A stretch of DNA of 64,000 nt from Caenorhabditis remanei (lineage: Eukaryota; Nematoda; Chromadorea; Rhabditida; Rhabditidae). The stretch lies in contig NC_071330.1 of assembly GCF_010183535.1 (NCBI RefSeq), positions 2,337,717-2,401,716 on the forward strand, given 5' to 3'. Under the pieces are notes generated by a model. It was not told the origin of the DNA. It saw only the letters and a program-made list of their open reading frames with translations, and ran no database searches. Shown in pieces: positions 4,101 through 59,200 of this stretch. Within the stretch, counting starts at the first letter, position 1. Each line of letters opens with the position of its first letter. Position numbers and translations under genes: made by a program.

Positions 4101-7100
4101 ATGTCAAATTCGACGATGGAGGCGACTCAATGGAAGGTAAAACAGGCGGTCGACGAGATGATTGATGATTTGGATAAGAACTATTTGAGAGATATGCAGA
4201 AGAGCATGTTTCTCTGCTCAGCAAAGTTAGTAAAAGTGACTGAAAAAATGAAGAAAATTGGCTGAAAAAAGGCTGAAAAATGCTGTAATTCTCAGAAAAA
4301 TCTACAATTTTTGCTGAAAACGAACAAAAATAATACAAAATTTTCGACTTTCACTACTAGAAAAGTCGAATCACTCAAAAATCAGTTCTATATGATTTAA
4401 AAAATTTTAAAACTGCAAAAACAGCTACACAAGTTATGCAAGCTTTGTGAAATTACAATGCCGTATCGTAAAATGTTTTTATTTTATTTAGTAGAGGTTT
4501 TCGTGGTTTAGATAGGTTTATTATAGGGTAAGAATAAGGATGGGAAGAAGAAGTCATGAATGATAACCAGAACGGTATTTATACTGGATCTTCGATGGGC
4601 GGAGTCAGCGGCTTTCAGACAGGCAGGGCAACGGGCGCTTCAGGAATGTGCATCATGGGACTGTGGGCGATAGAGCATTTGAGGTTTGGTTATGGTGCAT
4701 GATGTTTGAGACGGTTTGGATCTTGTGGGCGGCTGGGTGAGATAGTGTTGGAGATTGGAGACGGTTCCAGAATGTGATGTGGATGGGATATGGAGCGGCG
4801 CCTTTGACAGTGTGGGTTGATGGCGAGAGAGTGTTTGAGTTGGTGAGACGTTGACGGGAGATCTGGAAGAATCGTGTTAGGCTTAATAATGGGAATGGGA
4901 CGTGGGAGCGGGCTCGCCTGTCCTGGACAGAGACCCGGAAGTATCCGGATGGGATGACGATGATGCGTCACCGGGTACAAAGTCCGGTGGGATCTTGGAA
5001 TACCTAAGGGATTACGATATCCCTTACACCTCCCTCCTCAGCGAGGACCGACCCTGGTCCTCTAAAGGAAAACAGGTGTCTTATCGGTTGTTGGTGGTTA
5101 TTGGAAAAGTCTTCAAAATTATTGGATTGTTGGTATTGGCTTTTTAAAAAAAAAATTCTTTTTGGATTCTGACGGAATTTTGGAATATTGGTACTTAGTA
5201 TTGGTTTTATGGGCTGATTTTTTTTTTGATTTGTTGAGGTTTAGGCTGGTGTTAGGGGTTGCTCGAAAAAATGAGAGAGAGAGACTGGATACTAATAGGG
5301 ACGACCTTGTCATATCCAGTCCTCGGAAACGAACTACTGTTTCCATAATTTTTGAAATTTCTTGCCCCCCGCCTAGGTGGATTACCTTGGAAATTTTCCA
5401 ATCATCTAGTGGAGCGTCTGCAGATGCCGCATGAGGTGGCTCGGATCTTTGTGGAAGGATCCGGGCGGGATCTTGCAGAAAAGATTGGACCACAACTTCG
5501 ATCGTCCGGCGGCGGCGACATCGACCAACACGAGGCATAGCGATTTGGTGCGGGTCATGGCGACGTTGAGTCTTTCCGGGCTCTCGATGAAGTCAGGATC
5601 GGCGGCGGCGGTTCCATCTGGAGTCTTGTTCCTTTCACCGGCTCTGTCGGACGAGTGGAAAGACTTGGAGCGGGAGGTGAGGATGATCACGAGGTCGAAC
5701 TCTTGCCCTTGTGACGCGTCGATGGTTCCGACAAAAGCTGGGGTGTCGTCGAGTTCTCTTGCTACGTATCCGGCCTGGGCTTTGTAGTAGGTGAGGATGC
5801 CGATCGATGCTTTTTCTTCTCTTGCCAGCACTCGTGACGTGATTGCCAGAGCGATGCTTGCTTCCGTTGGGTTGAAGAGTGAGGTTCCGGAAGTTTGTTG
5901 GGCGGCGAACCTGGTGGTGTCGATGATCTGGAGCGGATAGCCATTGTTGAAGGCGAGAAGATCAGGGAAACGGCTTCTCTCTCTTGGTCTCCTGATCGAC
6001 GTGAGCCGGTTCTGGTAGAACAGGGCCGAACTCGTGGCTGTGACTTCGAACGGGCATCTACGGACTTCTGTGATGTTCAGCTGGCATGAGGTCTTCGATG
6101 TTCCTCCCAACAGGTTTCCGACCGCGGGAACTTTGAGAACCTCGTTCAGATCGATGTCGGCATACGGCTTGAGTTGTTTGATATCTCCGATTAAGGCGTA
6201 TCGAGCTTTTGGGCAGAGAGGACCAAGAGCAATGACTGAGTGGATGGCGATCTGTGATGCTTCGTCCATTTGTACGGTTGCAACGCGTGATCCGTATTGT
6301 GACATGGCTCCGTTCTCCCGAAGTGCGTCAGTCACCGAGGAGATTGTTCCAATGACTCCTCGTGGATTGATGAGTTGCACGAGAATCTCGAAGATGGTGC
6401 GGATTGGTTTCTGGACGGCTTTGAGGGCCTTTTGGAGATCCTTCCGACGAACGAGTTTGAGGCTGATGGACTGCACTCTGCGAAGGTGGGCGTATGCGTC
6501 GAGGACTATCTCGGTGATGGGTGCCTGGTCATCGTTGTCCGTGCGCTGAAGAAGTTTGTCAAACTCACGTGGCCAGACAACTGGGAAGTCAAAGGACGTT
6601 CTGTGTTGCGGATCGATGTGGTCGTAGTTTGCGGCGGAGATCATGCGGATGATGGTGGCGGCATTGGAGATCTTTGAGTAGGAAAGTACGATGGCGGCGG
6701 TTGCGGCGTTGGTGGTTGCCATGGCGAGGTGCATCTTGTTTCCTGCGGACTCGCGGATGGTGATGTGAAGAGCGGCCGCGATCATGGTGGTTTTGCCTAC
6801 TCCGAATGATGAATTGGCAACGATAACTGGGATGTTGGTTTTAGCCAACGCGCAGACGTATCTTGACTGCTCCGAAGTCAATACGACGCTACCCATTTCG
6901 ATGTTGAAACGGTGATCTGGAATCGATTCCCAGGGAATTGGTCGGCCTCCGAGGCATGCTTCCAACAACAGCTTGACTGGAGCTTTTGGATCCATTGTCT
7001 GGTAGACTGCGGCGGACGGGAAAAGCTTGAGATGGTACTCGTTGTTCTCCATCTCTTGCCAGACGATGGTGCGAACTCGGTTCATCTTATAAGCGGTGTC

Positions 7101-10100
7101 CACAGCTTCCGATTCTGAAGTGATCAGCTTTGCTCTTATCACGAGGTCGTTGTCCACAAACGAGGCGTCGTCGACTTCCATCTGCAGATTTCTTCCGTCG
7201 GCTTTCATGAGGAAGACCGATGAGCGCGCCCATTGGGAGATCTGGGCTGGACCACTAAGATTCGTTAGTACAAACGAAATCGTTGGTTTGTTGCGGACCG
7301 TCAAGACTCTGTCGATGAGAACGGTGTGAACCTGGAAGTCTTTGTTTTTGTTTGCGAGCGCTAGAGTTCCAGAGAGACCAAGGTAGGCGGAGTCGAAGAG
7401 TGCTTTGTAGCATTTTCTGATGTCACTCGGAAACTTTTTGAACGGCTGGACGGTGTGACACATTGTTTCCTGTGTTTCCGTGGAAGCTGCGGCGAGAGTG
7501 ATGACACTAGGGAAAGTTGGGATGGAAGAAGCGTGGTCGCGCGTTTGATCGGCTGCGTATGGGCGTGACTCGTCGGATAGATTCCACACGAACTCTCCAG
7601 TCTTAAGCTTCGGGCAGAAAATTTTGGCTGAAACAATAGTCCCTGCTGACGCTGTTTTGTCAAGCGCCTTGAACATGTCCGCTTTTGCGGTTACCAGAGT
7701 ATTAAAACCGGCGGCGACGCAGAGGACTTTACCAGAACGAGACTTGCTTGAGTTTACCTTGACGGCCACGACATCCTCCTGGATGGTCCTGTGTAGCAGA
7801 TAGCACGTCTTAATCTTCCAGAAGTGGTGATTTTTCGTACTGTGAATTCCGTCGAAAGAGACTAGCTTTTCTCCGACTGTTGCCTTTGGCCGGGTGACTA
7901 GCTCAGTCACGTACAACGCGTCCCCTGGGTAGTAGTTGCTGGTGTGTGGGACTACACCCGGGTTCGAAAGGTCGTCTGCGAATACGTCGAAGTAGACCAT
8001 ATGAAGGTCTGGCCTGTCGTTGGCCACGACTTCGAGGAGATGGGGCTTCGCGTACCATCCTCTTCCGTCGCTCTCTACAATTATGTAGATCACTCCCCAG
8101 TCGGATGGTTTGGAAGTGATTCCGGTGAGCGCGGTTTTCGGGGCTCCACTGCGGCCTCCTCCGCCTTCTGTGAAAATTTGAGAGGCGGCTTCGGTTTTGG
8201 CGCGGAAGAAGGTGACGTGAGCTAAGTCAATTTGCGTGGCGATCCAGCGGACGTGTTCGTTCATGCTCGGTGGGGTGTTTTTAACGAAGGTGTAGTGAGG
8301 TGCGAACGGATGATCGCTTGGATCAGCAGAATCTGAGGTAACGTAGGTTTGAATCGGATGTGAGTCGACAGAGTTCAAGCTACGGTCCTCAGGGAGGCTG
8401 GTGATTTTCTCAAGAGCGGAGTTGGTTTCGTTTACGACTGGGGTTGCCGGATTCATTTCGGAGCTGCGATCCTTTTGAAAACAGTTTTCTTCCCCGTGTA
8501 CCGTGCTCACCGAAGATGGCTTTTCCGTGGATTCCTGTGTCTCCTCGGTGCTGGTTTCGGTGGCGTCGTCTCCCAGGATTTCTGCTTCCTGTTCGGGCGA
8601 GACGTCGACCATCTCGATGTCGTTGTTGCTGAGGCGAAGATCCTCGGCTGCTGCTGCGGGGTCGGTCGGCGGTGGTTGATCGTTGAGCGGGGGATCCGCC
8701 GGGTTGTCGGTCATTGCTTGGTCGGTGAGTTGGTTCGTTGGTTTCTGAAATGATAACATTGATGGTTTTGGATATTAGCTCTTAAACGAGGGGTAGGAAA
8801 AAGAAAAGGAAAAAGGTGGCGAGAGAGAGGGAGAGAGATAGAGAAGGAGAGAGAAAAGTAACGCGAAAGAGAGGAGAAAATGTGTTTTCGGAGGCGGTGC
8901 GATGGTATTTTCGAGAAAGGAATAGGAGAACGAGCTTGGGTGAAGAGGATATTGAAATTCGGAAAGAAAAGGTAGGGATGCGCAACCTACGCTTCGTGCA
9001 TTAAAAAAAATTTTAATTATGGTTTCGAAATGGGATTCTCATTCCTTGCAATGGAACGTGGTTCCGGACTCCTTCAGCAACGGCTTGGCCTATCTGTCTG
9101 GCCATGCCCGTTATTGGGTCGTCGTGGCGAAAGAATTTTCTCTCGTAATGAGGGTCGCAACCGCATGTGAGTTCGACGACTGGGCGATGTCTGGTCCATA
9201 CCTCCGTCGATACTATGCGGAATTGTGGGGGAGACCGCAATGGCAACGGGTTGTTTCTGCGATCCTGTCGCCAAGGCGGACCTCCACTGGCGAGGCGTCC
9301 GTCCTCGAGTACGTAACCCGGAAGGTCTTCTTTGACGTCGAAGGTGCTGAATGGCGAATCATCTCTCGCGATCCATACGGTGAGTGTATCCTCGTGGCGA
9401 CGAATCGTGACGTTGAGTTTGACCAGGTGTACGATTTTCCAGGGTGGTGGGTCCTGTCGGCCAGGTTTGGGCGGAATCGATGGTTGAGAATCCGTGAAGG
9501 CTCTCTTCATGTTCGAGAATGCTGAAATTATAACTTTTGATTGTTTGGGTATTGGTTCTTAACGAGCGAAAGAGAGAGGGAGAAAATGGGTGGTTTCGAG
9601 GGTGACATGGTTAGTAATCAGATGAAACGGATGGACGGAAAATTGGTTTAGAACAAAAACGCGTGGAAGGTAGGGATGTACAACCTACGCTTCGTCTGTT
9701 TCTAAGATTTAGTTTCGAGCGAAAAATCTCATCCCTTCTATTGGGAGGTTGTTCCAGATTCTTTCTGCGATAGCCTGTCCCAACTGACGGGTTATGCATA
9801 CTAGTGGTATGTCGTGGTACCAGTAGTCCGCGTCGTATTCCGGATGGCAACCGCAACTGAGATAGTCGAACGAGACGTGTCTTTTCCAGGCTTCGGTTGA
9901 CGCTTCACAGAATTGTGGCTCGGGTTGCGCGGGCGTAGTGATTCTGGGACCACTGAGGGCTCTCCAAGGTGGCGCGGTGGCAGCATGGAGGCGTCCGTCC
10001 ATGAGTATGTAACCCGGAGATTCTTCCTCTTCTTCTTCCATGGCTACTGTGATCTCGTGCGGCTCGAATGGTTCGAGGTCCAAAGTGACCCATGCGGTGA

Positions 10101-13100
10101 GATCATCGTCAAGGAGACAGGTCTTGACGTTGACCTGAACCAAAGGTCCAATTGCCCAGTATTGTTCAGGTTGACGGGCAACGGGGTCGGGGGGTGGTGG
10201 CGAATCCATGGCGGGCGTGAGGAGTGCTCAAGTATGCTGAAATGGTAACCTTGGTCTGTTGCGTATTTTTAAGCAAGAGGAAGAGGAAAAGAGACGACTG
10301 AGAAAGCGGAGTAGTGGTAATTTCGGAGAGCAACGTAAGTGGGTGGAAGAAGAAAAATTAAAAATGTTTGCGACCTGGGGAATGTAGGGATGTGCAGCCT
10401 ACGCTTCGTCTAGGCTCTTGTCCTATCGAGAAATGTCATCCCCTCTACCGGACATAGGTTCCAAAGTCTCTCGGCGACGTCCTGAGCTAACTGCCTGGCC
10501 CTGCACCGGTCTATGTCCAAGTGGTCGTCTTCGTCGTAGAAATCGTCGTATTCCAAGCTGCAGCCGCATGTGTGGTTACCGTAGACTGCGCCATGTCTTT
10601 TCCAGGCCTCGATGCAGTACCAGCCGGAGTGCGGGGGTTCGAAGGTGTCGTAGAGTGAATGGGATGCTGGAGGCATAACCTGGAGAACACCACCCATGAG
10701 CCAGAAATAACGGAAGGGTGTTTGGATGAACGGAAGGCGGCCTATGCTTCTTGGTTCTAACTCTAACTTGACAATTCCTATGGTGATTCCGTCAACGACG
10801 CCGGTGTGGGCGTATATCTCGACCAGGGGTCCACGTGGGTAGATAGAGTGACGTGGCTGATCGGGACGGAGAAGAACGGATGGTTGTGAACTCATGAAGG
10901 GTGTGAATAGTACGCAAGTATGAAAGCTAAAGAAATCGAAAAATAAGTAACGTTATTTTTGATGAGTGATGGAAGAGGCAAACCGAGGGCTTTAATAAAG
11001 ACGAAAATCAGAGAGGGAAAAAAAACGTAGGTGAGCTTGAAACAAGCTAGTACCGGGATAAATAAAATAAATAGTACGAGAATTTAACGGGCTCCTACAC
11101 GTAAAAAAAAATGCGTTAAAAAAATGATGATGGCAATCGTAATGTTAATAATGCGAATGTCGACGGGAACGCGACGAGAAATCAGTATAAGGAGAATGGG
11201 GAGAAACGGGGAAGAAGGGTACAGTACGCGAAAAAAAAAAATGATAGATGCTCCCTTCTCTTGGCTTCCATGCCAAGGGACGAGGCTTACGATATTGCGG
11301 ACAATAAGTTAGAAGAAGATAGAAAGTGACTCAGCTAGATGGCGCGTTGTGAAAATGCGGTAGGATGAAAAGACTGAGGCAACAAGGGGCGAAACAACGA
11401 TGCTGACGTTAAGAGGACAAAGAGGGGAAAGAAGATACGGTAAGGGCTGTAAAGTCGTGGGTGGAACGAAAAATAACTCCATCGGACTGTATTCGCTCGC
11501 TGTTTAGAGTTTAGCTGGAACTCGGTTTCTACACTGGTGATATAACAAGAGGTTTTTGGAATTGGGGAATTGATTCGGGATGGATGGAAATAAACAAAAG
11601 CGGGCGAGGATAGTGACAGAGGAGAATAAAAAAAAACAAAAGCGGGCGAGGATGGTGCCAGAGAAGAAAAAAACAAAAAGGGTGAGCCGATGGGTGGACT
11701 GTAATTTGATACGCGGTTTCTACTAATGACTGGAGTTGGGTTTGCTTGGCGGAGAGTTTTATGGTCACGTTTAATCAGGGCTGCGACCTGATCCTGTTTC
11801 GGAAAAAAAAATTACCTCAAGTGATTTTAACTTAGCTACTCTTAACTAAAGTTACTGCTTGGGCGTACCTATTATTTGCTGATGAGTGAAGAATCTGGTG
11901 ACGTTAGACTGAGCCGATACGGGGCAAATTGTGGTGCTGGGGTCTTATTTTGCTGCTACGGGGAAGTAAATTGTAGAGTAAAAAGTGACTGTGAATGTTT
12001 CGAATGGGCCGAGAAGTATTACTGATTTTGACGGCGCTTTCGGTCAGACGCGAAATGACCTTTCGTTACGACAACTGAAGGCCCTTGAGGAACGATAGTG
12101 TTAGCTTAGCGGCTTCTAAAGTCAAAAACTTAACTTGAACAGGTGAATTCGGCGCGACCTTTTAAAGGACTTTTACGTAAAGAAAATTTCTAGGTTGGCG
12201 AACCTGTCGATGAAGGTATTTAGGATGGGGGTTTCGATATGATTTTGAGTAACTTAAGACAACTGGACTGGGAACCGTTAATTGCGCATACGAGCCGGTT
12301 GGGAACCCTGACTTACCTTCGATGAAGTTGATCCTCCTTTGACTTGAAGCAACGAACATTTTGCTAACAACACTTGACGCACGTGTACCATACACGTGGG
12401 GAAAACGACTTCGAACTATCTTATTTTCTTATTCTATTCTTACAAGTATTTTTACTTTAAGAGGGGAAACTTAATTCCTAAGCTTGTCGCTACGAGGCAA
12501 GATGAAAAGAAAAATAACAGGGAGCGAAGAAAGATTGCTACCGGACTGTTATATTCAAACGGTGGGGAAATAGAAGACGCGGGGACGAAAAGGGGGCGGG
12601 CGGGTGGGGGGATTGTGTACACATTACACTACTGCAGCTTTCTGCACTCTGAGTCATATCTTAAAAGGTCAACCTTTGTTGCCTATCTCACAAATTTTCT
12701 CAATTCTTTTGGACTACTCTCAACTCTCATCGTACGTACGGAATTCTCTTACTGACTCTTGACTCTTAACTCTTAAATTCTTAACTCTTAATTCTTAATT
12801 CTCGAAATTCACAAATGTCTCTATAAGACTTTTCTTACGACTAGGCAGGGAGACTCAACAAATAAAACTATGAGGGACCTAAGTATTAAACTAATTGGCG
12901 CCTAAGCTTAATACCTAAATTATCCTCCTACGGATGCATCCCGGACACGTATTTGTCCGACTCAAACTTAACTTAACTTATCTCAACTTATCATCAGGGG
13001 CGGCAGAGGTCCAATTACCCCCCTGGCACTCAATATACCTGCACTAATCGGTCCAACACTTACCTTACCATTCCTATCCAACAACGGGTCGATCTTTTGC

Positions 13101-16100
13101 TCGGCGGGACCACGGCCACCGAGACTCGCTGCTACCAGTAGAGGTTTTCGTGGTTTAGATAGGTTTATTATAGGGTAAGAATAAGGATGGGAAGAAGAAG
13201 TCATGAATGATAACCAGAACGGTATTTATACTGGATCTTCGATGGGCGGAGTCAGCGGCTTTCAGACAGGCAGGGCAACGGGCGCTTCAGGAATGTGCAT
13301 CATGGGACTGTGGGCGATAGAGCATTTGAGGTTTGGTTATGGTGCATGATGTTTGAGACGGTTTGGATCTTGTGGGCGGCTGGGTGAGATAGTGTTGGAG
13401 ATTGGAGACGGTTCCAGAATGTGATGTGGATGGGATATGGAGCGGCGCCTTTGACAGTGTGGGTTGATGGCGAGAGAGTGTTTGAGTTGGTGAGACGTTG
13501 ACGGGAGATCTGGAAGAATCGTGTTAGGCTTAATAATGGGAATGGGACGTGGGAGCGGGCTCGCCTGTCCTGGACAGAGACCCGGAAGTATCCGGATGGG
13601 ATGACGATGATGCGTCACCGGGTACAAAGTCCGGTGGGATCTTGGAATACCTAAGGGATTACGATATCCCTTACAATTTTATCAAATATCTTGATGAAAA
13701 ATTCGTGTTCATAAATATAATTTCGTCAAGAAAACGCATTTTTACATTTTTCCTGATAATTTTCTTCAAATTAGGCTGAAACTGTCAAATTTTGAACCAA
13801 ATTTTCTTTAAAAAGAGATCCCAATAAGGTGGCTACCAAGTCTGTGCGAAAAAATTTTCTAACGAAAAGATAGTTTCCGAAAAAATCGTTCGAAAAATTT
13901 AAGTAATTTCTTCTGAGATTCTTTCGAAAATTAAGTAACAAAAGTTGTGATTTTTCCTGAAATTTTTCCTAATTTTGCACATAAGAACAGGTTTTCGTGG
14001 GTCTGTCCTTGAAATACTTACAATGTTCATAAATTCTAGATTTTTCAGACTTTTCTTTACTTTTTTTCGGTTTTTTTCAGTCAAAACTGCTAGAAACCCG
14101 GATTTTTAACTAAAAAACTTGAAAACTGAATAGCAAAAATTCATCTGTAAACTGTCAAAACCAGACGATTTTCATCCAATTTCATATCATTTACAGCCAT
14201 TTTTCTCACAAAAAAAACCCTCAATTTCCCAAATTTTCCAGATGCTGTGACAACAAGAAGACGACACGTGACGCCGTTGAGAATTGTGTGGAGAGTTGTA
14301 ACGACGGAATGAAGAAAGCGCAAGGGAATCTGGAGAGAGAACTCGGTGGTCTACAGGATCAGTTGTCTCGGTGTGCGATGACTTGTTACGATAAACTCGT
14401 TCAACAATTCGGTCCAGATGTCAACAAGTACACTGAGAATCAGGTTTGTAGCAGGAAATTTATGGGGTAAAAGTCATACTTGCAACGGGCCGGGCCGATT
14501 TGAGAATTTTCACCGGCCCGGCCCGAGTCACAGTAAAAATTTGAAAATTTGAGTTTTTTTTTGAATTTTTTTTCGATTTTTTCGCAAAAAAAGTCGATTT
14601 GTTTTTACATTTCGATAAAATACCAGTTTACATGGATTTTTGACTATTTTTGATGAAAATTAAAAAAAATTTCGAACAATTTTTGGCTCCGGGCCGGGCC
14701 GGGCCGATATTTTGCATACTTGTCAAATGACGGGCCGGCCCGTCTCGTCAGGGATATGGGATTTTTGAGAAAAATTTTCAATTTTTTTTCAATTTTCAAT
14801 TTTTCATGCGGAAAAATTGACAAAAAGACACTCATATTATTCTATGAGAAAAGTCTGAGTTCATCTTAGTACACCTTTAATCAAATTTGCAAAAAAATTG
14901 AAAAAAAAATTCCCTCCAAAAAGACGGGCCTGAAAAGCTTCGGCCCGGCCCTTGACAAGTATGATATTTTGCAAGTCTGGTAAAAGTAACGAAATCCGAT
15001 TTAATTTTCATTGAAAACCAGTTTTTAAAGCTGGTGCTCAAAATTTGATACTAAAATTTAGAAAATAGTTTTTTTCTGAAGAGTGCTTCTCTGAAATTTC
15101 GGATTTCGTCCTGAAAATATTGATTTTAACCGAAAAAATGCTGGAAATTGACATTTTTCGGCTATTTTGACCCGAAAAACCTTGTTTTCTCACATTTTCT
15201 CCTCGGAGAGTCTACAATCCTTATTAGCTTCTTACAACTGCGCCCCATCGCAACCGAGAGAGTATCGGCGAGAGACGCAGAGTTTTTTTCTGGCGCGAAA
15301 CAGATTTTCACCATTTTTATCTTATTTTGCATAATTTTCTCTTTTTTTTTCTAGATTTTTAATTAAAACTTGTGAAAATAGATCAAAAATGGCGAAAATC
15401 TGTTTCGCGCCAGAAAAAACTCTGCGTCTCTCGCCGATACTCTCTCGGTTGCGGTGGGGCGCAGTTGTAACGAAATTGCTCTGCTAATATACACTGAGAG
15501 TCAGATTTATCACGAAATTCGGGGTGAAAAAGTAACGAAATCCGTCTAAATTTTCATGAAAAATCAGTTTTTGAAGCTGCTGATCAAAATTTGATACATT
15601 TTAGAAAATCAGATTTTCCGTTGAGGTCGTCTCTGAAATCTCTGAAAAAACGCCTGGAAACTTACATTTTAACCGAGAAACACTCAAAAATCGGTTTTTT
15701 CGTCTTTTTTTACCCGAAAACCCCTAATTTTTCAACATTTTGCCTTCTGAAATCCTAAAATATCACAGGTTGTTCATTGAATGAGAGGAAATGACATCGA
15801 AACGGAATAGACACAAAAAAGAATAGTTTTCTGATAATGAAATTAGAATTTTCTAGAGAAATTACGTAATAGTAGGAATAGCGTAGGAATGAGAGGAAGA
15901 GAGATAGGCTCCGCCCAATTTTTGCAGTTTTTTGAAGAAAAATTGCAAAGATGGACGAAGTTCAAGATAGTTTTTTGGTGAAATTGAAAAAAAAAACACA
16001 GAAATTGGTTTAAAATATGAAAAAATAGTGAATTATCCATACATCGAATCGTGAAGCTCCGCAAGATTTCTCTCCCTCTCCTCGATTTCCAACTCTCCGT

Positions 16101-53200: not shown

Positions 53201-56200
53201 CTCATAAAACTCAGTTTGAAGCGAGTTACGAGCCCCGGTTTGCAAGTATGATATAGATATTTGGCTATACCTCAAGAGTCGACTATATATGGTAGAGTCC
53301 TCATTGATTCCCAAATTCACATGCTCGTTGGGTTTTTCTTAGATGGTTTAGAGTACAGTAACCATACCATGTCTTAAAAGAAACATCGTATAGTTTACGT
53401 AAGAATTTTTCATGATTTTCACCCATTTTCAATCTAAAATCTGCATTTTTCAATTTTTCGACCAATATGGTTACTGTACTTTGGACTCTAGTTTGATCAT
53501 CTTTTTTTTTTTCGCTACCTAAATTCCACGTTTCCATCTCATTTTCTGCTTTCTGTTACACGTGAATTTCTAAAAAATTTCATATGTTTCATTTTTATCA
53601 GAATGTTCCTCTTTCCCAAGTATTCTCAACCAAACGCGCTCTACCGAAACGGAAGAAAATTGTGTACGAAATTGAGAGACTCAGAGAAAAAGTGACAGTT
53701 TTCAAGAGCATTTCGGTGGAGCGTAGTTGTTAGAAGCGTGCCGTGCTAATAGTACAAAATTTCACCAAAAATCAACATTTACATAGTTGTCAAGGCCCAG
53801 CTTCAAAAATTACCCTTTTTTTTCCATTTTTTTTCGAAATTTTTTCAATTTTTCATCGAAAATGTGACTATTTTTCGAAATTTCTTCAAATTCTGAATCA
53901 TAGTCGAAAATTTGACATTTTCGCGAAAAAGTTCAAAAAATTTTCAAAATTTGACTTTCGCGCCAATTTGCCCGGGCCTTCGGGCCTTGACAACTATGAA
54001 AATTTACGGCGAAATTTCTAGAATTGGCCTCGTCTAAAATTGGAAAATCTAACCGATCATTGGAAAACAGGGACCTAAAAATAGATTGAGCTTCAGAAAC
54101 CCCGCCCATTTTTCCATTTCTGAAAATTAATTTTCATCCCAAAAATCCTTTTGAAAACACGTAACCCTCAATCTCTTTGTATTTCAGGGAATGTCAAAAA
54201 TCGCTGGCGTCGGTGCGGCGCTCTCCGAGAAGCAACAAGAAGAGGAAGAGCGTCAAATCGAGGCGAAATCAGCGGTGAACTGGAAGAAGAATATCGAAAA
54301 GCATCGTCGACACATTGACTACTCTGACATATTCGATGAAGACGTCGGAAGTGAGGAAGGAATGTGGGTGTGGGAGATTGAGAACTTCTATCCATCGATA
54401 ATGGACGAGGCGTTCCACGGTCAATTCTACGATGCCGACGCGTATTTGGTGCTGAAAACGACACGAGAGATCTCCGGACAATTGAGACACGCTATCTTCT
54501 ATTGGTTGGGAGAGCACGCCTCTCTTGATAAGGGAATGTGTTCGGCAGTGCATGCAGTGGGTCTCCGGAATCATCTGAATGCTACGTGTCGGACACAGAG
54601 AGAGGAGATGAACGATGAGACGGAGGAATTCCTGACGTTGTTCGGTGAAGAGATTGTGTATATTGAGGGTGGACGGACCACTTCTGGATTCTATACGACG
54701 GAGAAACCCGCTCACTTGACGAGACTATACAGAGCGGGTGTCAATGGAACGGCGGTGGAAATGGAGCCGGTGCCGTTGAGTGCGGAGTCGTTGGATCCTA
54801 GATTCTGCTTCTTGTTGGATGCGGGGGAGACGATTTGGATATGGAGTGGTTATAAGTCGAGGGTGAGTGTGGGAACCCTGAAATTGACAGAAAAATGTGA
54901 AAAATGCCAAAACTATGCGAAAATTGTCTATTTTGGACTAATTTTCATCGATTTTCAGACATTTTCAACTGAAATCTAAATTTCTCGTCGGAAAACTGAA
55001 TCGTGAATCTGATAATGGCCGAGCCGGTAGGAAATTTTCAAGGCCCGGCTTCAAAAAATGACCCTTTTTTCCAATTTTTTTTCGAAATTTTTCCAATTTT
55101 TCATGGAAAATGTGACCATTTTTGACTATTTTTCAGAATTTCTTCTAATTCTGAGTGATAGTCGAAAAGTTGACTTTTTCGCGAAAAAATTCAAAAAAAT
55201 TTGAAAAATTTGAAAAATTTGACTTTCGCGCCAATTTGCCTGGGCCTTCGGGCCTTGACAACTATGGGAAAATTGGTCTCAAAAAGGGATTTACAGATTT
55301 TCATCATTTCTAGACAAAAAAGCTGAAATTTAGCTAATTTTTAGTGATCTACAATACGAATTATAGCAATTTTCAGACATTTTCAACAAAAATCTAGATT
55401 TCTCGTTGAAAAACTGAATTGGGAATTTGAAAATATAGAAATTCCCGTCATAATAGTCAAAAACCCTTCCTAAAAGCGAATCTTCCACCCGGAAATTGTC
55501 AAAATTGGTCACTGCTGGCCGAACTTTTCGTTTTTGTGTTTCTAGGCCACGGAAAGTTATTCCAATTCCGCTCTTGAAGTTTTATCATACTTTTTTTGAA
55601 CTGCTTCCTTTTATCAATATTATTAGGCTGAAAACACTGATAACTAGTCAAAATTTACAAATAATCGCGAAACTAACGGGGAAGAACTTTTCGTGGCCTA
55701 GAAACACAAAAACGAAAAATTCGGCCAGTAGTGACCAATTTCGGACTGAAAATCCGGTTTTAGAAGGGTTTTTGAGTATTGTCATGGGAATTTCCATATT
55801 TTTCTACACATTTTAAAACATATTCTCAATTTCCAGAAATCCCTTTTTAAACCTGAAAGAAATGTAGACTTTCGCATTGAAAACGTCTGAAAATCGCTAT
55901 AACTGGTATTGTAGATCACTAAAAATCAGATTTTCTGGCTGGAAATGATGTCAAACCCTCCAAAAATGGACAATTTTCGCTGAAATTTGTGTAAAAAATG
56001 CTCCAAGGCCCCCGAAATGCGCGCCCAAGGCGCCCCAGTTACTCTCTTCTCCCCCTCCCCCCATTAGAGATGACTCTCCTCGCCGACCGCCTTCCCCCTC
56101 TCCCCTTCCCTCTTTATAAACCGCCTCGACTCTCGTCTATTTCATGACTGCTTGGCGCAATGGTAGCGCGTTCGACTCCAGATCGAAAGGTTGGGCGTTC

Positions 56201-59200
56201 GATCCGCTCAGTGGTCAAATGTTTTTTGTTTTTTTGCTTTGCCTGTTTTGAGATGGGGAAGTGGGAATTTCAAGGGAATGAAGTATTTTGGGGTGATTTT
56301 GGATGTGGGATGAGGATAATTGGGGTGCCTCGGGCGCGTTTAGACTAGATCAAGAACGTGGTCGGAGTCTAGTTTACGGAAAATTCATAAATTATAGATT
56401 TCTGTAAGATTGACATGACTCGAAAGTGGGCGGAGCTACGAATTTTCTGCTTAAAATGTACCACAGTTTTTATCGATATTCGAAAGTTTCATTGACTGAA
56501 ACTCTCAAAAGTGGGCGTGGTCTTAAAATAGGCGGAGCTACAAATCTCCGGTTTATTCTTAAGAAATACTACAGTTTTAGTCGATTTATGAAAGTTTCAT
56601 TGACTGGAAATACCAAAAGTGGGCGTGGTCTGAAAATGGGCGGAGTTTAATCCAGAATCTGACCGTCTTAGAATGGGCGGAGCTACAAATTTTCGGTTTT
56701 TGCTTAAAAGGTGCGAAATACCACAGTTTTAGTCGATTTATGAAAGTTTCATTGACTGGAAATACCACAAGTGGGCTGAGTTTTGTCCAAATTCTGATAA
56801 TCTTAAAATGGGCGGAGCCTAATTATCTCAATGATTTCAGATCACCGTATCGAACAAAGCGCGTCTATTCGCCGAACGTCTGAACAAGCGAGACCGAAAA
56901 GGAAAATCAGAAATCGAGACGTGTCGCCAAGCGCGTTGCCCTCCAGAATTCTGGCAAGCACTCACTGGACATCCGGACAAACCGACGGGAACGATAGTGG
57001 AACACGTGCCGGAGGGATTTGTGGCGGAGCGGAAGAAGTTGTATAAAGTGAATATCGGAATGGGATTTCTCGAATTGCCACAAGTGGAATTGCCGAAAGG
57101 AATTGCCAAACAGGATATGTTGAATTCGAAAGGAGTATTCATTCTTGACTCGAATTCTGATATATTCCTATGGACTGGAAAGAAGGCGAATCGATTGTTG
57201 AAAATGGCTGGACAGAAATTGGTTGTCGAGTTGCATCAGATGCTTGATAGGCCTGATTATGCACAGGTATGTTATTGAGGGCCCATAATCCAAGGGTACA
57301 TCGAAAAAGGGTACATCTATGAAAAATTTGATCAAAGGGTACATTGAATCGAAGGGTACATCGAGGACCTATGATCATGGGCAGGGTTGGGAAATCCCGG
57401 GCCGGCCTGACAGAAATTTTTTGCAGGCCCGGTCCGGATTCAAAAAATGTGCACAATTTTTTCACATTTTTTTTCGTAATTTTCATTAAAAAATCATCAA
57501 AATGCTCCAAAATTCTCGTACACTTCAGTTTTTGTCGATATTCCAAAACATATTCAAAAATTAGACTTTTTTGCAAAAAGATTTCAAATTTCTACGGGAG
57601 CCGGGCCGGGCTGAGGAAAATTTTTCTGTCGGCTCGGAATTTCCCAACCCTGATCATGGGGTACATCCATACATAAAATTTCAGAAGTCTCACAGGATTC
57701 ATCAACTTTTGAGAAAAGCTTTACAGACGTAGTTCGAGGAACGTATTATTGCTGTTTTCAGAAGGATGACATAAAAAGAGATATTATTGAGACATTTAAT
57801 CTCAAAAAACTGGTTATTAGCACGACACACTTCTTACAACCGCGCTCTACCGAAACCAAAGAAAATTGTATCCGAAATTGAGAGACTCAGAGAAAAGGAG
57901 ACATTTTTCAAGGGCATTTCGGTGGAGCGCAGTTGTAAGAACTGTGCTGAACTAATTAAGAAATTTATACGGAAATCCGTTATTTTTGCTCGAAAAACTG
58001 GATTTCAAGCCATTTTTTGAAGTTTTTTGAATGAATCTTAACAGGAAATCATAAGAATTTTCAGAAAAAAGTTGAAAAATCCCGAAGAAAAACATTAAAC
58101 ATTTTGCATTAAAAATCTGTAAAAATCGGCCTAAAATTAATTCCGTAGACGTTTTTTTGCCCAATTTTAGTCGTAAATTTGCAAGAATAAGACAAGAATT
58201 ACTGCGAAAACCTGACCAAAACCTGATATTTTTTTCAAAAATTCATAGGCACAGTCTCCCAAACCCCGAAAAACAACTGCAAGCGAAAGTTCTCAGCGGA
58301 GCGCAACGGCCGCGCGCTACAGTAGTCCGAATTAATTTTTCAACTGAAAATTTTGATTTTTTCAAAATTACGAACAATAAAGGGAATAAAAAGTGAAAAT
58401 TGTCCATTACAAAGAACGACAAAGGCAAAAGCAACATTTCGGAAAAAAGAAAACTATTTTTGGAGCAAAAATAAAGGCGCTGATACAGATCGCAGTTTTG
58501 GCCTGAAAAATCAGTTTTTTCACTATTTCTCGAAACTTATTCGGCAAAAAAGTGACCCATCCATCAGAAATGAAGATCTATTTATTGCGGATTTTTTGAG
58601 CTATAATTGAGATGGAAACGTCAAGAAATAGAGAGCTGGACACAGTTTGAAGTCGAGAATTCGGCAAACATTTTCAGTGGAAAATGGTGTTTTCTTATAA
58701 AAATTATCAAATGCAACACTCAAAAGACATGATATCATGGTTTTTAGTAAAATAATTGTTTAATTCAGAAAAAAGTTCCTTGATGTCTTCATCACATTAA
58801 CCTTTATTGAAGTGACTTTTTCATCTTTAGCTTCACGCTAAAAATTTAAAAAATTCACTTTTAGACCTTCAAATTTCTCAAATTTTTCGTTTCGTGAGGG
58901 GAGATCGAAAATTTCCTTGCAGTTCTTACTCGGACTTTGGGAGACCGTGATAGAATAAAAATCTGAAAACTAGGCGGAATTTGAATTTTTTCCATAAAAT
59001 ATTGCCTATGAATCAAAATTTTCTGAAATAAAAATTGGGATATCCGGAATAAAAGACATACAGACAGACAAATCCAAAATCCGATTTTCATCAATTTCAA
59101 CGAAAAAATTCAATATTTTAGGAGTGATAGCCTAATTTTCAATTTTTCCTGAATTTCCTAGGTCTTCTCGTTGATAAAAATGAAAAAAAGGTCTGATTGA

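What the first reader, a model, noticed from the sequence alone, without database searches (positions are those of the whole stretch)
4490..13675. LTR element without reverse transcriptase that carries a UPF1-like helicase and three paralogous ORFs
Seen: 539-bp direct LTRs, an adjoining TGGTAGCAG primer-binding site and purine tract, TATA and AATAAA in the LTR, and four intact ORFs on the LTR strand. None is gag or pol. Known: non-autonomous LTR elements usually are non-coding or carry decayed gag-pol; a 1.1-kb-residue-scale intronless SF1 helicase with DEAS and SQGQE motifs is not standard cargo. Inference: a retrotransposon lineage that exchanged gag-pol for a helicase module, either a captured host gene family or a counter-defence system, since UPF1/MOV10-like helicases act in small-RNA silencing of retroelements. 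Mobilised in trans by an autonomous partner.
Basis: partly seen in the sequence, partly recalled or inferred. Interest (0 to 1): 0.93.

Follow-up and report, generated by a model that had tools for sequence, protein, structure and literature searches.

The report
Helicase-carrying LTR retrotransposon in nematode
A young jumping element in a roundworm genome has lost its own copying machinery but keeps a helicase gene that looks functional, and related elements that do carry copying machinery bear the same kind of helicase, so the helicase looks like a real accessory gene of this retroelement group whose job is unknown.

Summary
Window 4490-13675 is a real, recent LTR insertion in Caenorhabditis remanei: identical 539-bp LTRs, 4-bp duplication AAAT, primer site and purine tract, and four open minus-strand ORFs (helicase plus three paralogous ~160-aa proteins). 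Six more LTR-paired helicase elements of this LTR family lie at other sites; five of the seven, the window's included, carry an open helicase frame and all three small ORFs.

The interpretation needs one main correction. The helicase did not simply replace gag-pol. A sister Ty3/gypsy lineage carries pol and helicase in one element: a helicase lies 3' of RT-integrase at 4 of 4 loci found. The window element is a gag-pol-less derivative with decayed gag in its leader. Its likely source of gag-pol (2 intact copies) shares LTR ends and primer site, lacks the helicase, and carries one small-ORF homologue. Two other LTR families also hold helicase-only elements.

Helicase dN/dS among gag-pol-less copies is 0.05-0.24, so it works for the element. 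What it does is inferred: most likely it remodels or protects the element's own RNA. The boldest reading left open is a two-component retrotransposon, gag-pol on one element and helicase on another. Ten keyword searches listed no earlier description.

The parts
4490..5028 (-). 3' LTR (539 bp, coding strand minus)
   Evidence: 100% identical to the 5' LTR; 34 matches to this LTR in the genome
13137..13675 (-). 5' LTR (539 bp); TATAAA at LTR position 446, AATAAA at 507
4486..4489 (.). target-site duplication, copy 1 (AAAT read on the minus strand)
13676..13679 (.). target-site duplication, copy 2 (AAAT read on the minus strand)
13125..13137 (-). primer-binding site TGGTAGCAGCGAG; the tRNA was not identified
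   Evidence: the 15 bases after the LTR are identical in the two autonomous copies (L038/L039, L040/L041)
5029..5041 (-). polypurine tract next to the 3' LTR
10896..13136 (-). leader with decayed gag fragments; its PBS-proximal part (LEAD 1785-2241) is 83% identical to the autonomous element's leader
13057..13066 (-). splice-donor-like AAG|GTAAGTG, 74 nt after the 5' LTR; kept in 7 of 7 helicase elements of this LTR family, absent from the 2 autonomous copies
12310..12320 (-). second splice-donor-like GAAG|GTAAGTC; at +806 to +828 in 7 of 7 helicase elements of this LTR family
10410..10895 (-). small ORF sC (161 aa); T-rich AG acceptor-like site ends at 10927
9709..10209 (-). small ORF sB (166 aa); acceptor-like CATTTCAG 10244-10237
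9013..9510 (-). small ORF sA (165 aa); acceptor-like AATTTCAG 9529-9522
10379..10411 (-). GCGTAGG-loop-CCTAC hairpin after sC
   Evidence: D4 family
9665..9697 (-). same hairpin after sB
8967..8999 (-). same hairpin after sA
   Evidence: also after the small ORF of the autonomous copies
5406..8759 (-). SF1 helicase ORF (1117 aa; likely start 8714); acceptor-like CATTTCAG 8752-8745; motifs GVGKT, DEAS, GDIKQL, SQGQEFD, RLNVAMTR
   Evidence: purifying selection

Best explanation
SHOWN: this is a young, non-autonomous member of a Caenorhabditis Ty3/gypsy group. One lineage of the group (el52) encodes protease, RT, RNase H and integrase and then an SF1 helicase as a 3' accessory ORF (its gag was not read). 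The window family lacks gag-pol but keeps the helicase and three copies of a small ORF that the autonomous relative carries once. Helicase dN/dS is low among gag-pol-less copies. INFERRED: the family arose by deletion of gag-pol from a gag-pol-helicase ancestor. It moves by using gag, RT and integrase from L038/L040-type elements, which share its LTR ends, PBS, leader start and nearly its purine tract. The ORFs are expressed from spliced subgenomic mRNAs, using donor-like sites in the leader and an acceptor-like site before each ORF. The helicase binds or remodels the element's own RNA, aiding export, packaging or escape from decay or small-RNA silencing. Because it is kept on elements that could borrow it from others, it probably favours the RNA that encodes it.
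For: Insertion: 4-bp duplications in 14 of 14 tested insertions and LTR pairs with 0 differences, except one pair with 1. Pol with helicase: el52 (C6) has a protease in an open frame, an intact RT-RH-IN ORF (1031 aa) and then an open helicase frame (1080 aa), inside identical 380-bp LTRs spanning 12.1 kb, duplication ATTC; about 3.4 kb of its 5' internal region was not read. Of the RT loci found, 4 of 4 in the 70-72% class have the helicase downstream on the same strand, one of them 3.5 kb away and with stops. Deletion intermediates: L037 and L042 keep gag and PR fragments, and L037 also RT residues 15-77, upstream of the helicase. Partner: L038/39 and L040/41, each with open 1423-aa and 1043-aa gag-to-PR and RT-RH-IN frames, identical LTRs, duplications AGAG and ATTT. 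Selection: 10 pairs among 5 gag-pol-less copies, omega 0.054-0.235; el51 pair 0.145; el52 pair 0.081; Fisher p at most 4.3e-22 in all five pairs tested.
Against: No expression, splicing or activity data. The direction of change (loss of gag-pol versus gain of helicase) is inferred without a rooted tree. The two autonomous copies nearest the window family lack the helicase, so a gag-pol-helicase ancestor within this LTR family was not found. The autonomous copies' LTR is only 89% identical to the window's (95-96% to L037 and L042). dN/dS pairs are not independent and conversion between copies was not excluded. The leader is no clean neutral yardstick: its mismatch lies below helicase dS in 4 of 4 pairs, and for window versus L037 (10.5%) also below dN (12.6-12.7%). 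One of the five open helicases (L031) lacks 21 residues of helicase domain 2. Small-ORF omega is weaker (0.14-1.1 in the helicase elements). The helicase structure prediction was useless (pLDDT 37).
Confidence: 0.72

Rival explanations
1. Two-component retrotransposon: the gag-pol element (L038/L040 type) and the helicase element need each other. The helicase is supplied in trans by the helicase element, gag-pol by the other, and both RNAs are packaged through the same leader and copied.
For: In the window LTR family the autonomous copies lack the helicase (0 of 2) while five helicase-only copies have open frames; in the 57% RT class 0 of 4 RT loci have a helicase hit nearby, while an LTR-related helicase-only family (el51) has two copies with open frames. 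Only the 70-72% class has it in cis (4 of 4). So each of three RT classes has the helicase either in cis or on an LTR-sharing or LTR-related element. Small-ORF homologues lie on both partners.
Against: The autonomous copies may simply not need it. The el51 LTR is only 70-72% identical to LTRs next to three of the four RTs of the 57% class. Neither genome search was exhaustive (44 of 280 and 41 of 60 candidates scored). No dosage, packaging or mobility data.
Confidence: 0.22
2. The helicase is a trans-acting anti-silencing factor: a decoy or competitor of host SF1 helicases used in small-RNA silencing or decay (ERI-6/7, ZNFX-1, SMG-2 type; the last recalled), protecting all related elements.
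For: Host SF1 helicases act in worm small-RNA pathways (ERI-6/7, PMC3213143 passages). The helicase diverges faster than pol between the window and el52 lineages: 31-33% versus 69-72% identity, as expected in an arms race.
Against: A purely trans benefit gives no reason for each gag-pol-less family to keep its own copy. The ATPase motifs are kept in the four C. remanei lineages compared, arguing against a dead decoy. No specific similarity to a silencing helicase.
Confidence: 0.25
3. Passenger: a host gene captured by read-through or template switching, mobile but without use to the element.
For: Gene capture by LTR elements is known (for example the title of PMC3726574, seen in the listing).
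Against: Open frames and omega well below 1 in three separate LTR families; helicase at 4 of 4 RT loci of the 70-72% class.
Confidence: 0.03
4. Host genes or segmental duplications that happen to be flanked by direct repeats.
For: Long intronless frames of this helicase family are numerous, and some may be host genes.
Against: 4-bp duplications, different flanks, PBS and purine tract at every full copy tested.
Confidence: 0.02

Closest known systems
Ty3/gypsy (Metaviridae) elements of Caenorhabditis, such as Cer1 with its 3' ORF protein CERV
   Same: LTRs, PBS, pol order PR-RT-RH-IN in the partner, and an extra ORF between pol and 3' LTR. CERV is made from a spliced mRNA and is needed for genomic RNA export (PMC10309623, abstract and passages).
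   Different: Cer1 uses a tRNA-Pro PBS TGGGGGCCG (same paper); here it is TGGTAGCAGCGAG. CERV is 517 aa and the word 'helicase' occurs 0 times in that paper. Homology of the small ORFs to CERV was not tested.
Bdelloid rotifer LTR elements with captured ORF3 (GDSL esterase, DEDDy exonuclease, env), and TelKA2n
   Same: An enzymatic extra ORF at the 3' end. [quoted passage not shown]
   Different: No helicase ORF there (the word occurs once, in a reference title). They report ORF3 variation as mostly neutral; here omega is low.
Autonomous/non-autonomous pairs such as RLG_Cereba and RLG_Quinta in wheat
   Same: Partners recognised by shared PBS, LTR ends and purine tract; the non-autonomous one still encodes a protein (PMC11302176, abstract and passages).
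   Different: Quinta supplies GAG; here the non-autonomous element supplies a helicase and small proteins, and no intact gag.
UPF1/SEN1/DNA2-type SF1 helicases
   Same: SF1 motifs and AAA_11/AAA_12 domains.
   Different: Own N-terminal region with motif E[VL]VA[ND]DRPDL; no hit to a UPF1-specific Pfam domain; profile ties between SEN1, DNA2 and UPF1.

Membership tests
LTR retrotransposon (any) | identical or near-identical direct LTRs, PBS, purine tract, target-site duplication | tested here: met
   4-bp duplication AAAT
Autonomous Ty3/gypsy element | intact gag and pol in the element | tested here: not met
   no gag-pol ORF in 4490-13675; decayed gag in the leader
Non-autonomous element of the L038/L040 Ty3/gypsy family | same LTR ends and PBS and matching purine tract as an intact autonomous element; PR-RT-RH-IN order in the partner | tested here: met
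   LTR 89% identical, purine tract differs by one or two bases of 15; the partner's protease match is just under its Pfam cut-off (24.1 against 24.3 bits)
LARD/TRIM-type non-autonomous elements (recalled definition) | internal region without coding capacity | tested here: not met
   four open ORFs, helicase under selection
SF1 helicase | Walker A, DExx, motifs III, V and VI | tested here: met
UPF1 (SMG-2) orthologue | UPF1-specific N-terminal zinc domain (recalled) | tested here: not met
   all six Pfam rows are helicase/AAA domains or one weak unrelated row
UPF1 (SMG-2) orthologue | closest similarity to UPF1 | tested here: inconclusive
   single sequence: UPF1/NAM7 only; profile: SEN1, DNA2 and UPF1 tie
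CERV protein family (for the small ORFs) | sequence homology to Cer1 CERV | not tested
Trans-spliced polycistronic unit | spliced-leader mRNAs for downstream ORFs | not testable with these tools
   acceptor-like sites before each window ORF, no RNA data

The most novel reading that the evidence does not exclude
These elements form a split, two-component retrotransposon system: gag-pol on one element and a helicase plus small RNA-handling proteins on another, each needing the other, derived from a one-piece gag-pol-helicase ancestor whose arrangement survives in the el52 lineage. That would be a retroelement counterpart of multipartite viruses.
Probability: 0.22. Interest if true: 0.92.

Novelty: new variant of a known kind. 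Interest (0 to 1): 0.78.

Why it matters
Retroelements are best known as targets of SF1 helicases (MOV10 and ERI-6/7 types; UPF1 recalled). Here a retroelement group encodes its own, in one piece with pol in one lineage and on separate gag-pol-less elements in others, and selection keeps it. That makes two questions testable: what 3' accessory genes of LTR elements do, and whether non-autonomous elements can be partners rather than parasites. The host is a free-living laboratory nematode close to C. elegans, where small-RNA and decay pathways are well mapped.

Tried and rejected
Segmental duplication or a single locus: rejected. Helicase swapped for gag-pol: rejected as the simplest account after el52 was found. 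Neutral passenger: rejected by dN/dS. Leader divergence as a neutral yardstick: tried and dropped, because the leader differs less than helicase synonymous sites in 4 of 4 pairs. Known fold for the small ORFs: the AlphaFold2 model is weak (mean pLDDT 62) and Foldseek against the PDB gave 0 matches at E <= 0.001 (best 0.88). Helicase structure: pLDDT 37, unusable. Pfam for the three small ORFs and the one of L038: none above cut-off. Homologues in the protein collection: a profile of the small ORFs gave 3 C. remanei proteins (682 candidates); the helicase gave 6 proteins, 4 C. remanei, 1 C. brenneri, 1 unnamed (7991 top candidates scored). A profile of 5 helicases listed 3 of those six plus two distant AAA proteins; it missed P0004 and its own members P0005 and P0006, so these searches are not exhaustive. 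Primer tRNA: not identified (ARAGORN on the window found only tRNA-Trp). Autonomous partner of el53: not found; 16 LTR pairs roughly 5 kb apart share its LTR (40 of 50 candidates scored) and none coincides with an RT or helicase hit, but only 44 of 280 RT candidates were scored. Not in print: searches (open-licence PMC only; I saw the listed rows, not all papers counted) listed no paper on a helicase encoded by an LTR element; I opened four papers and saw abstracts, passages and, of PMC5408684, one section.


Full report
Observation. The window lies on contig C3 of a 130.5-Mb, 186-contig assembly. A public protein on a contig of the same length as C1 is named Caenorhabditis remanei (GCK72_000367). 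The LTRs at 4490-5028 and 13137-13675 are identical over 539 bp, start TGTAAGG and end CTACT on the minus strand, and are flanked by AAAT on both sides. Four minus-strand ORFs are open.

Copies. An LTR search of the genome gave 34 matches. I fetched 20 stretches around the larger ones outside the window; a few short matches were not followed. Nine LTR pairs and two solo LTRs could be tested for duplications: 11 of 11 show a 4-bp duplication; three further single LTRs could not be tested. Of the nine pairs, eight have identical LTRs and one a single difference. Seven of the nine pairs are helicase elements. Five have an open helicase frame and three small ORFs: the window, L032, L036, L033/L035 (with roughly 18 kb of other DNA between sB and sC) and L031. 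The L031 helicase is shortened to 1068 aa by in-frame deletions, one of 21 residues in helicase domain 2. L037 has a 1108-aa helicase frame with one in-frame stop near its start. L042 has a decayed helicase. Helicase fragments also lie in L043-L045 and L048.

Autonomous partner. The other two pairs (L038/L039 and L040/L041) have the same LTR ends and the same 15 bases after the LTR as the window element, and a purine tract differing by one or two of 15 bases. Each has an open 1423-aa frame and an open 1043-aa frame. In L038 these match gag, zinc knuckle and aspartic protease (the last just under its Pfam cut-off), and RT, RNase H, H2C2 and integrase. Each element ends with one ORF homologous to the small paralogues (37% identity to sB for both, rounded) and has no helicase match. 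So the small ORF is a 3' gene of the autonomous element that is present three times in the helicase element.

Origin of the helicase element. The window leader carries decayed gag. L037 and L042 carry larger gag and protease fragments, and L037 also RT residues 15-77 within about 200 nt upstream of its helicase acceptor. An AAA_12 search led to other long intronless helicase frames; three loci were read. el51 (C3) has identical 425-bp LTRs and duplication ATAT. el53 (C5) has LTRs of about 373 bp after a one-base trim at each end of an identical 375-bp repeat, and duplication GTAA. Both lack gag-pol-length ORFs: their leaders hold no frame over 188 aa, and el51 has only a weak gag match of 89 residues. 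el52 (C6) has a protease, an intact RT-RH-IN ORF (69% identity to L038 over 1040 aligned residues) and then an open helicase frame, inside identical 380-bp LTRs spanning 12.1 kb, duplication ATTC. I did not read about 3.4 kb of its 5' internal region, so its gag is unverified.

Genome-wide picture. With the L038 RT-IN protein (44 of 280 candidates scored), close RTs fall into three classes: L038/L040 (2 loci), a 70-72% class (4 loci, one partial with a stop) and a 57% class (4 loci, two with a stop); all others listed are at most 37%. With the window helicase (41 of 60 candidates scored), a helicase lies downstream on the same strand at 4 of 4 loci of the 70-72% class (two with full-length open frames; one on C102 matched only over residues 101-650; one 3.5 kb away with two stops), at 0 of 4 of the 57% class and 0 of 2 L038/L040 copies. 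Three loci of the 57% class lie next to LTRs 70-72% identical to those of el51. Between the window and el52 lineages the helicase is 31-33% identical while RT-IN is 69-72%, so the helicase diverges much faster.

Selection. Nei-Gojobori counts on the five window-family helicases give omega 0.054-0.235 over 10 pairs; against L037, 0.183-0.192 over 5 pairs. Other families: el51 pair 0.145, el52 pair 0.081. Since the five copies share the gag-pol-less structure, the selection seen among them most likely acted after gag-pol was lost. A control did not work as hoped: the leader differs by 4.0-5.6% in three window-family pairs, above helicase dN (1.8-1.9%) but below dS (10.5-14.7%), and for window versus L037 it differs by 10.5%, below dN (12.6-12.7%). 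So the leader is itself constrained or exchanged and is no neutral yardstick. The small ORFs show weaker constraint (omega 0.14-1.1 in the helicase elements; 0.12 for the single autonomous pair). In the sequences compared, the helicase motifs are kept in all four C. remanei lineages, with changes in L037 (motif III QPKS) and small ones in others; the unnamed homologue P0006 has GEAN for DEAS. L031 was not in that comparison.

Expression signals. Each of the four window ORFs, and the small ORF of L038, has a T-rich AG acceptor-like site just upstream; so does the helicase of el52, while el51 has none close to its frame start. All seven helicase elements of the family keep AAG|GTAAGT at +74 and GAAG|GTAAGTC at +806 to +828; the two autonomous copies lack the first, and only 396-465 nt of their leaders were scanned. 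el51 showed no such donor in 2.3 kb and el53 two others. The arrangement resembles a retroviral major splice donor; spliced-leader trans-splicing is equally possible. A GCGTAGG...CCTAC hairpin follows each small ORF in the window, L031, L032, L036 and the L033/L035 copy, and in L038 (with one base changed) and L040; L042 keeps one although no small ORF was found there. Its role is unknown.

Function. CERV of Cer1, encoded by a 3' ORF in the same position, is needed for genomic RNA export (PMC10309623, abstract and passages). By analogy of position, not homology, the 3' genes here may handle the element's RNA. Retention of the helicase by elements that already lack gag-pol argues for a benefit to the encoding RNA, or for a two-component arrangement in which the helicase is their contribution. 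These two readings are not separated by the present data.

Context. Extra enzymatic ORFs in LTR elements (bdelloids, PMC5408684), a pol-less relative keeping its 3' ORF (TelKA2n, same paper) and protein-supplying non-autonomous partners (RLG_Quinta, PMC11302176) are known. A helicase ORF in LTR elements appeared in none of the rows listed by my ten library searches, which cover open-licence PMC papers only.

Noticed in passing
L038:6036-7973 (and L056:3363-4499): The first ORF of the autonomous element runs gag - glycoprotein-like region - protease without a stop. The middle region has a strong hydrophobic stretch near residue 1083 and a sub-threshold match to Monjiviricetes_fusion (E 4e-4, 18.9 bits against a cut-off of 27). 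An env-like part between gag and protease would be an unusual order.
   Followed up: partly
G000 C2:19210082/19223527, C4:10563899/10577321, C4:20224052/20237527: An el52-type LTR sequence (85-94% identical) sits as an inverted pair about 13.4 kb apart at three loci. At the two loci read, the arms are perfect inverted repeats over at least 441-451 bp, reaching beyond the LTR match. Perhaps an LTR inside the terminal repeats of a large DNA transposon.
   Followed up: partly
L034 (C1:15591300-15601299): One helicase element contains roughly 18 kb of extra DNA that includes two arms of at least 4568 bp in perfect inverted orientation, 250 bp apart (one arm reaches the end of the fetched piece): a nested palindromic element or an assembly artefact.
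   Followed up: partly
L043:2243-6709 (C148): A Pao/BEL-type element with a 1488-aa pol frame lies between stretches that match this helicase family.
   Followed up: no
G000 C2:15701817-15723229, C5:9182937, C4:15748606, C2:6133159: Long intronless frames (741-1050 aa) whose match covers only the helicase core, not the N-terminal region, four of them clustered on C2.
   Followed up: no
G000, e.g. C4:9037206-9042285: Sixteen LTR pairs roughly 5 kb apart share the el53 LTR and 3' region at 69-77% identity, with no RT or helicase hit nearby. Their content is unknown.
   Followed up: no
window 8967-8999, 9665-9697, 10379-10411: A conserved hairpin follows every small ORF and holds TACCTT in two of the three window copies, recalling (from memory) the Ur element of SL2 trans-splicing. 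It also follows the last ORF of the autonomous element, which does not fit a purely intergenic role.
   Followed up: partly
G000 C1:14473759, C1:13709274, C6:20871809, C147:7352: Four weaker small-ORF homologues (35% identity) outside the seven elements that carry the ORF.
   Followed up: no
L051:108-3632, L053:69-3479, L052:2171-5401: The helicases of el51, el53 and el52, but not the window's, pass the Pfam cut-off for Viral_helicase1 over a short C-terminal stretch (33.2, 32.7 and 24.6 bits against 21).
   Followed up: no
window 56145-56218: A tRNA-Trp gene.
   Followed up: no
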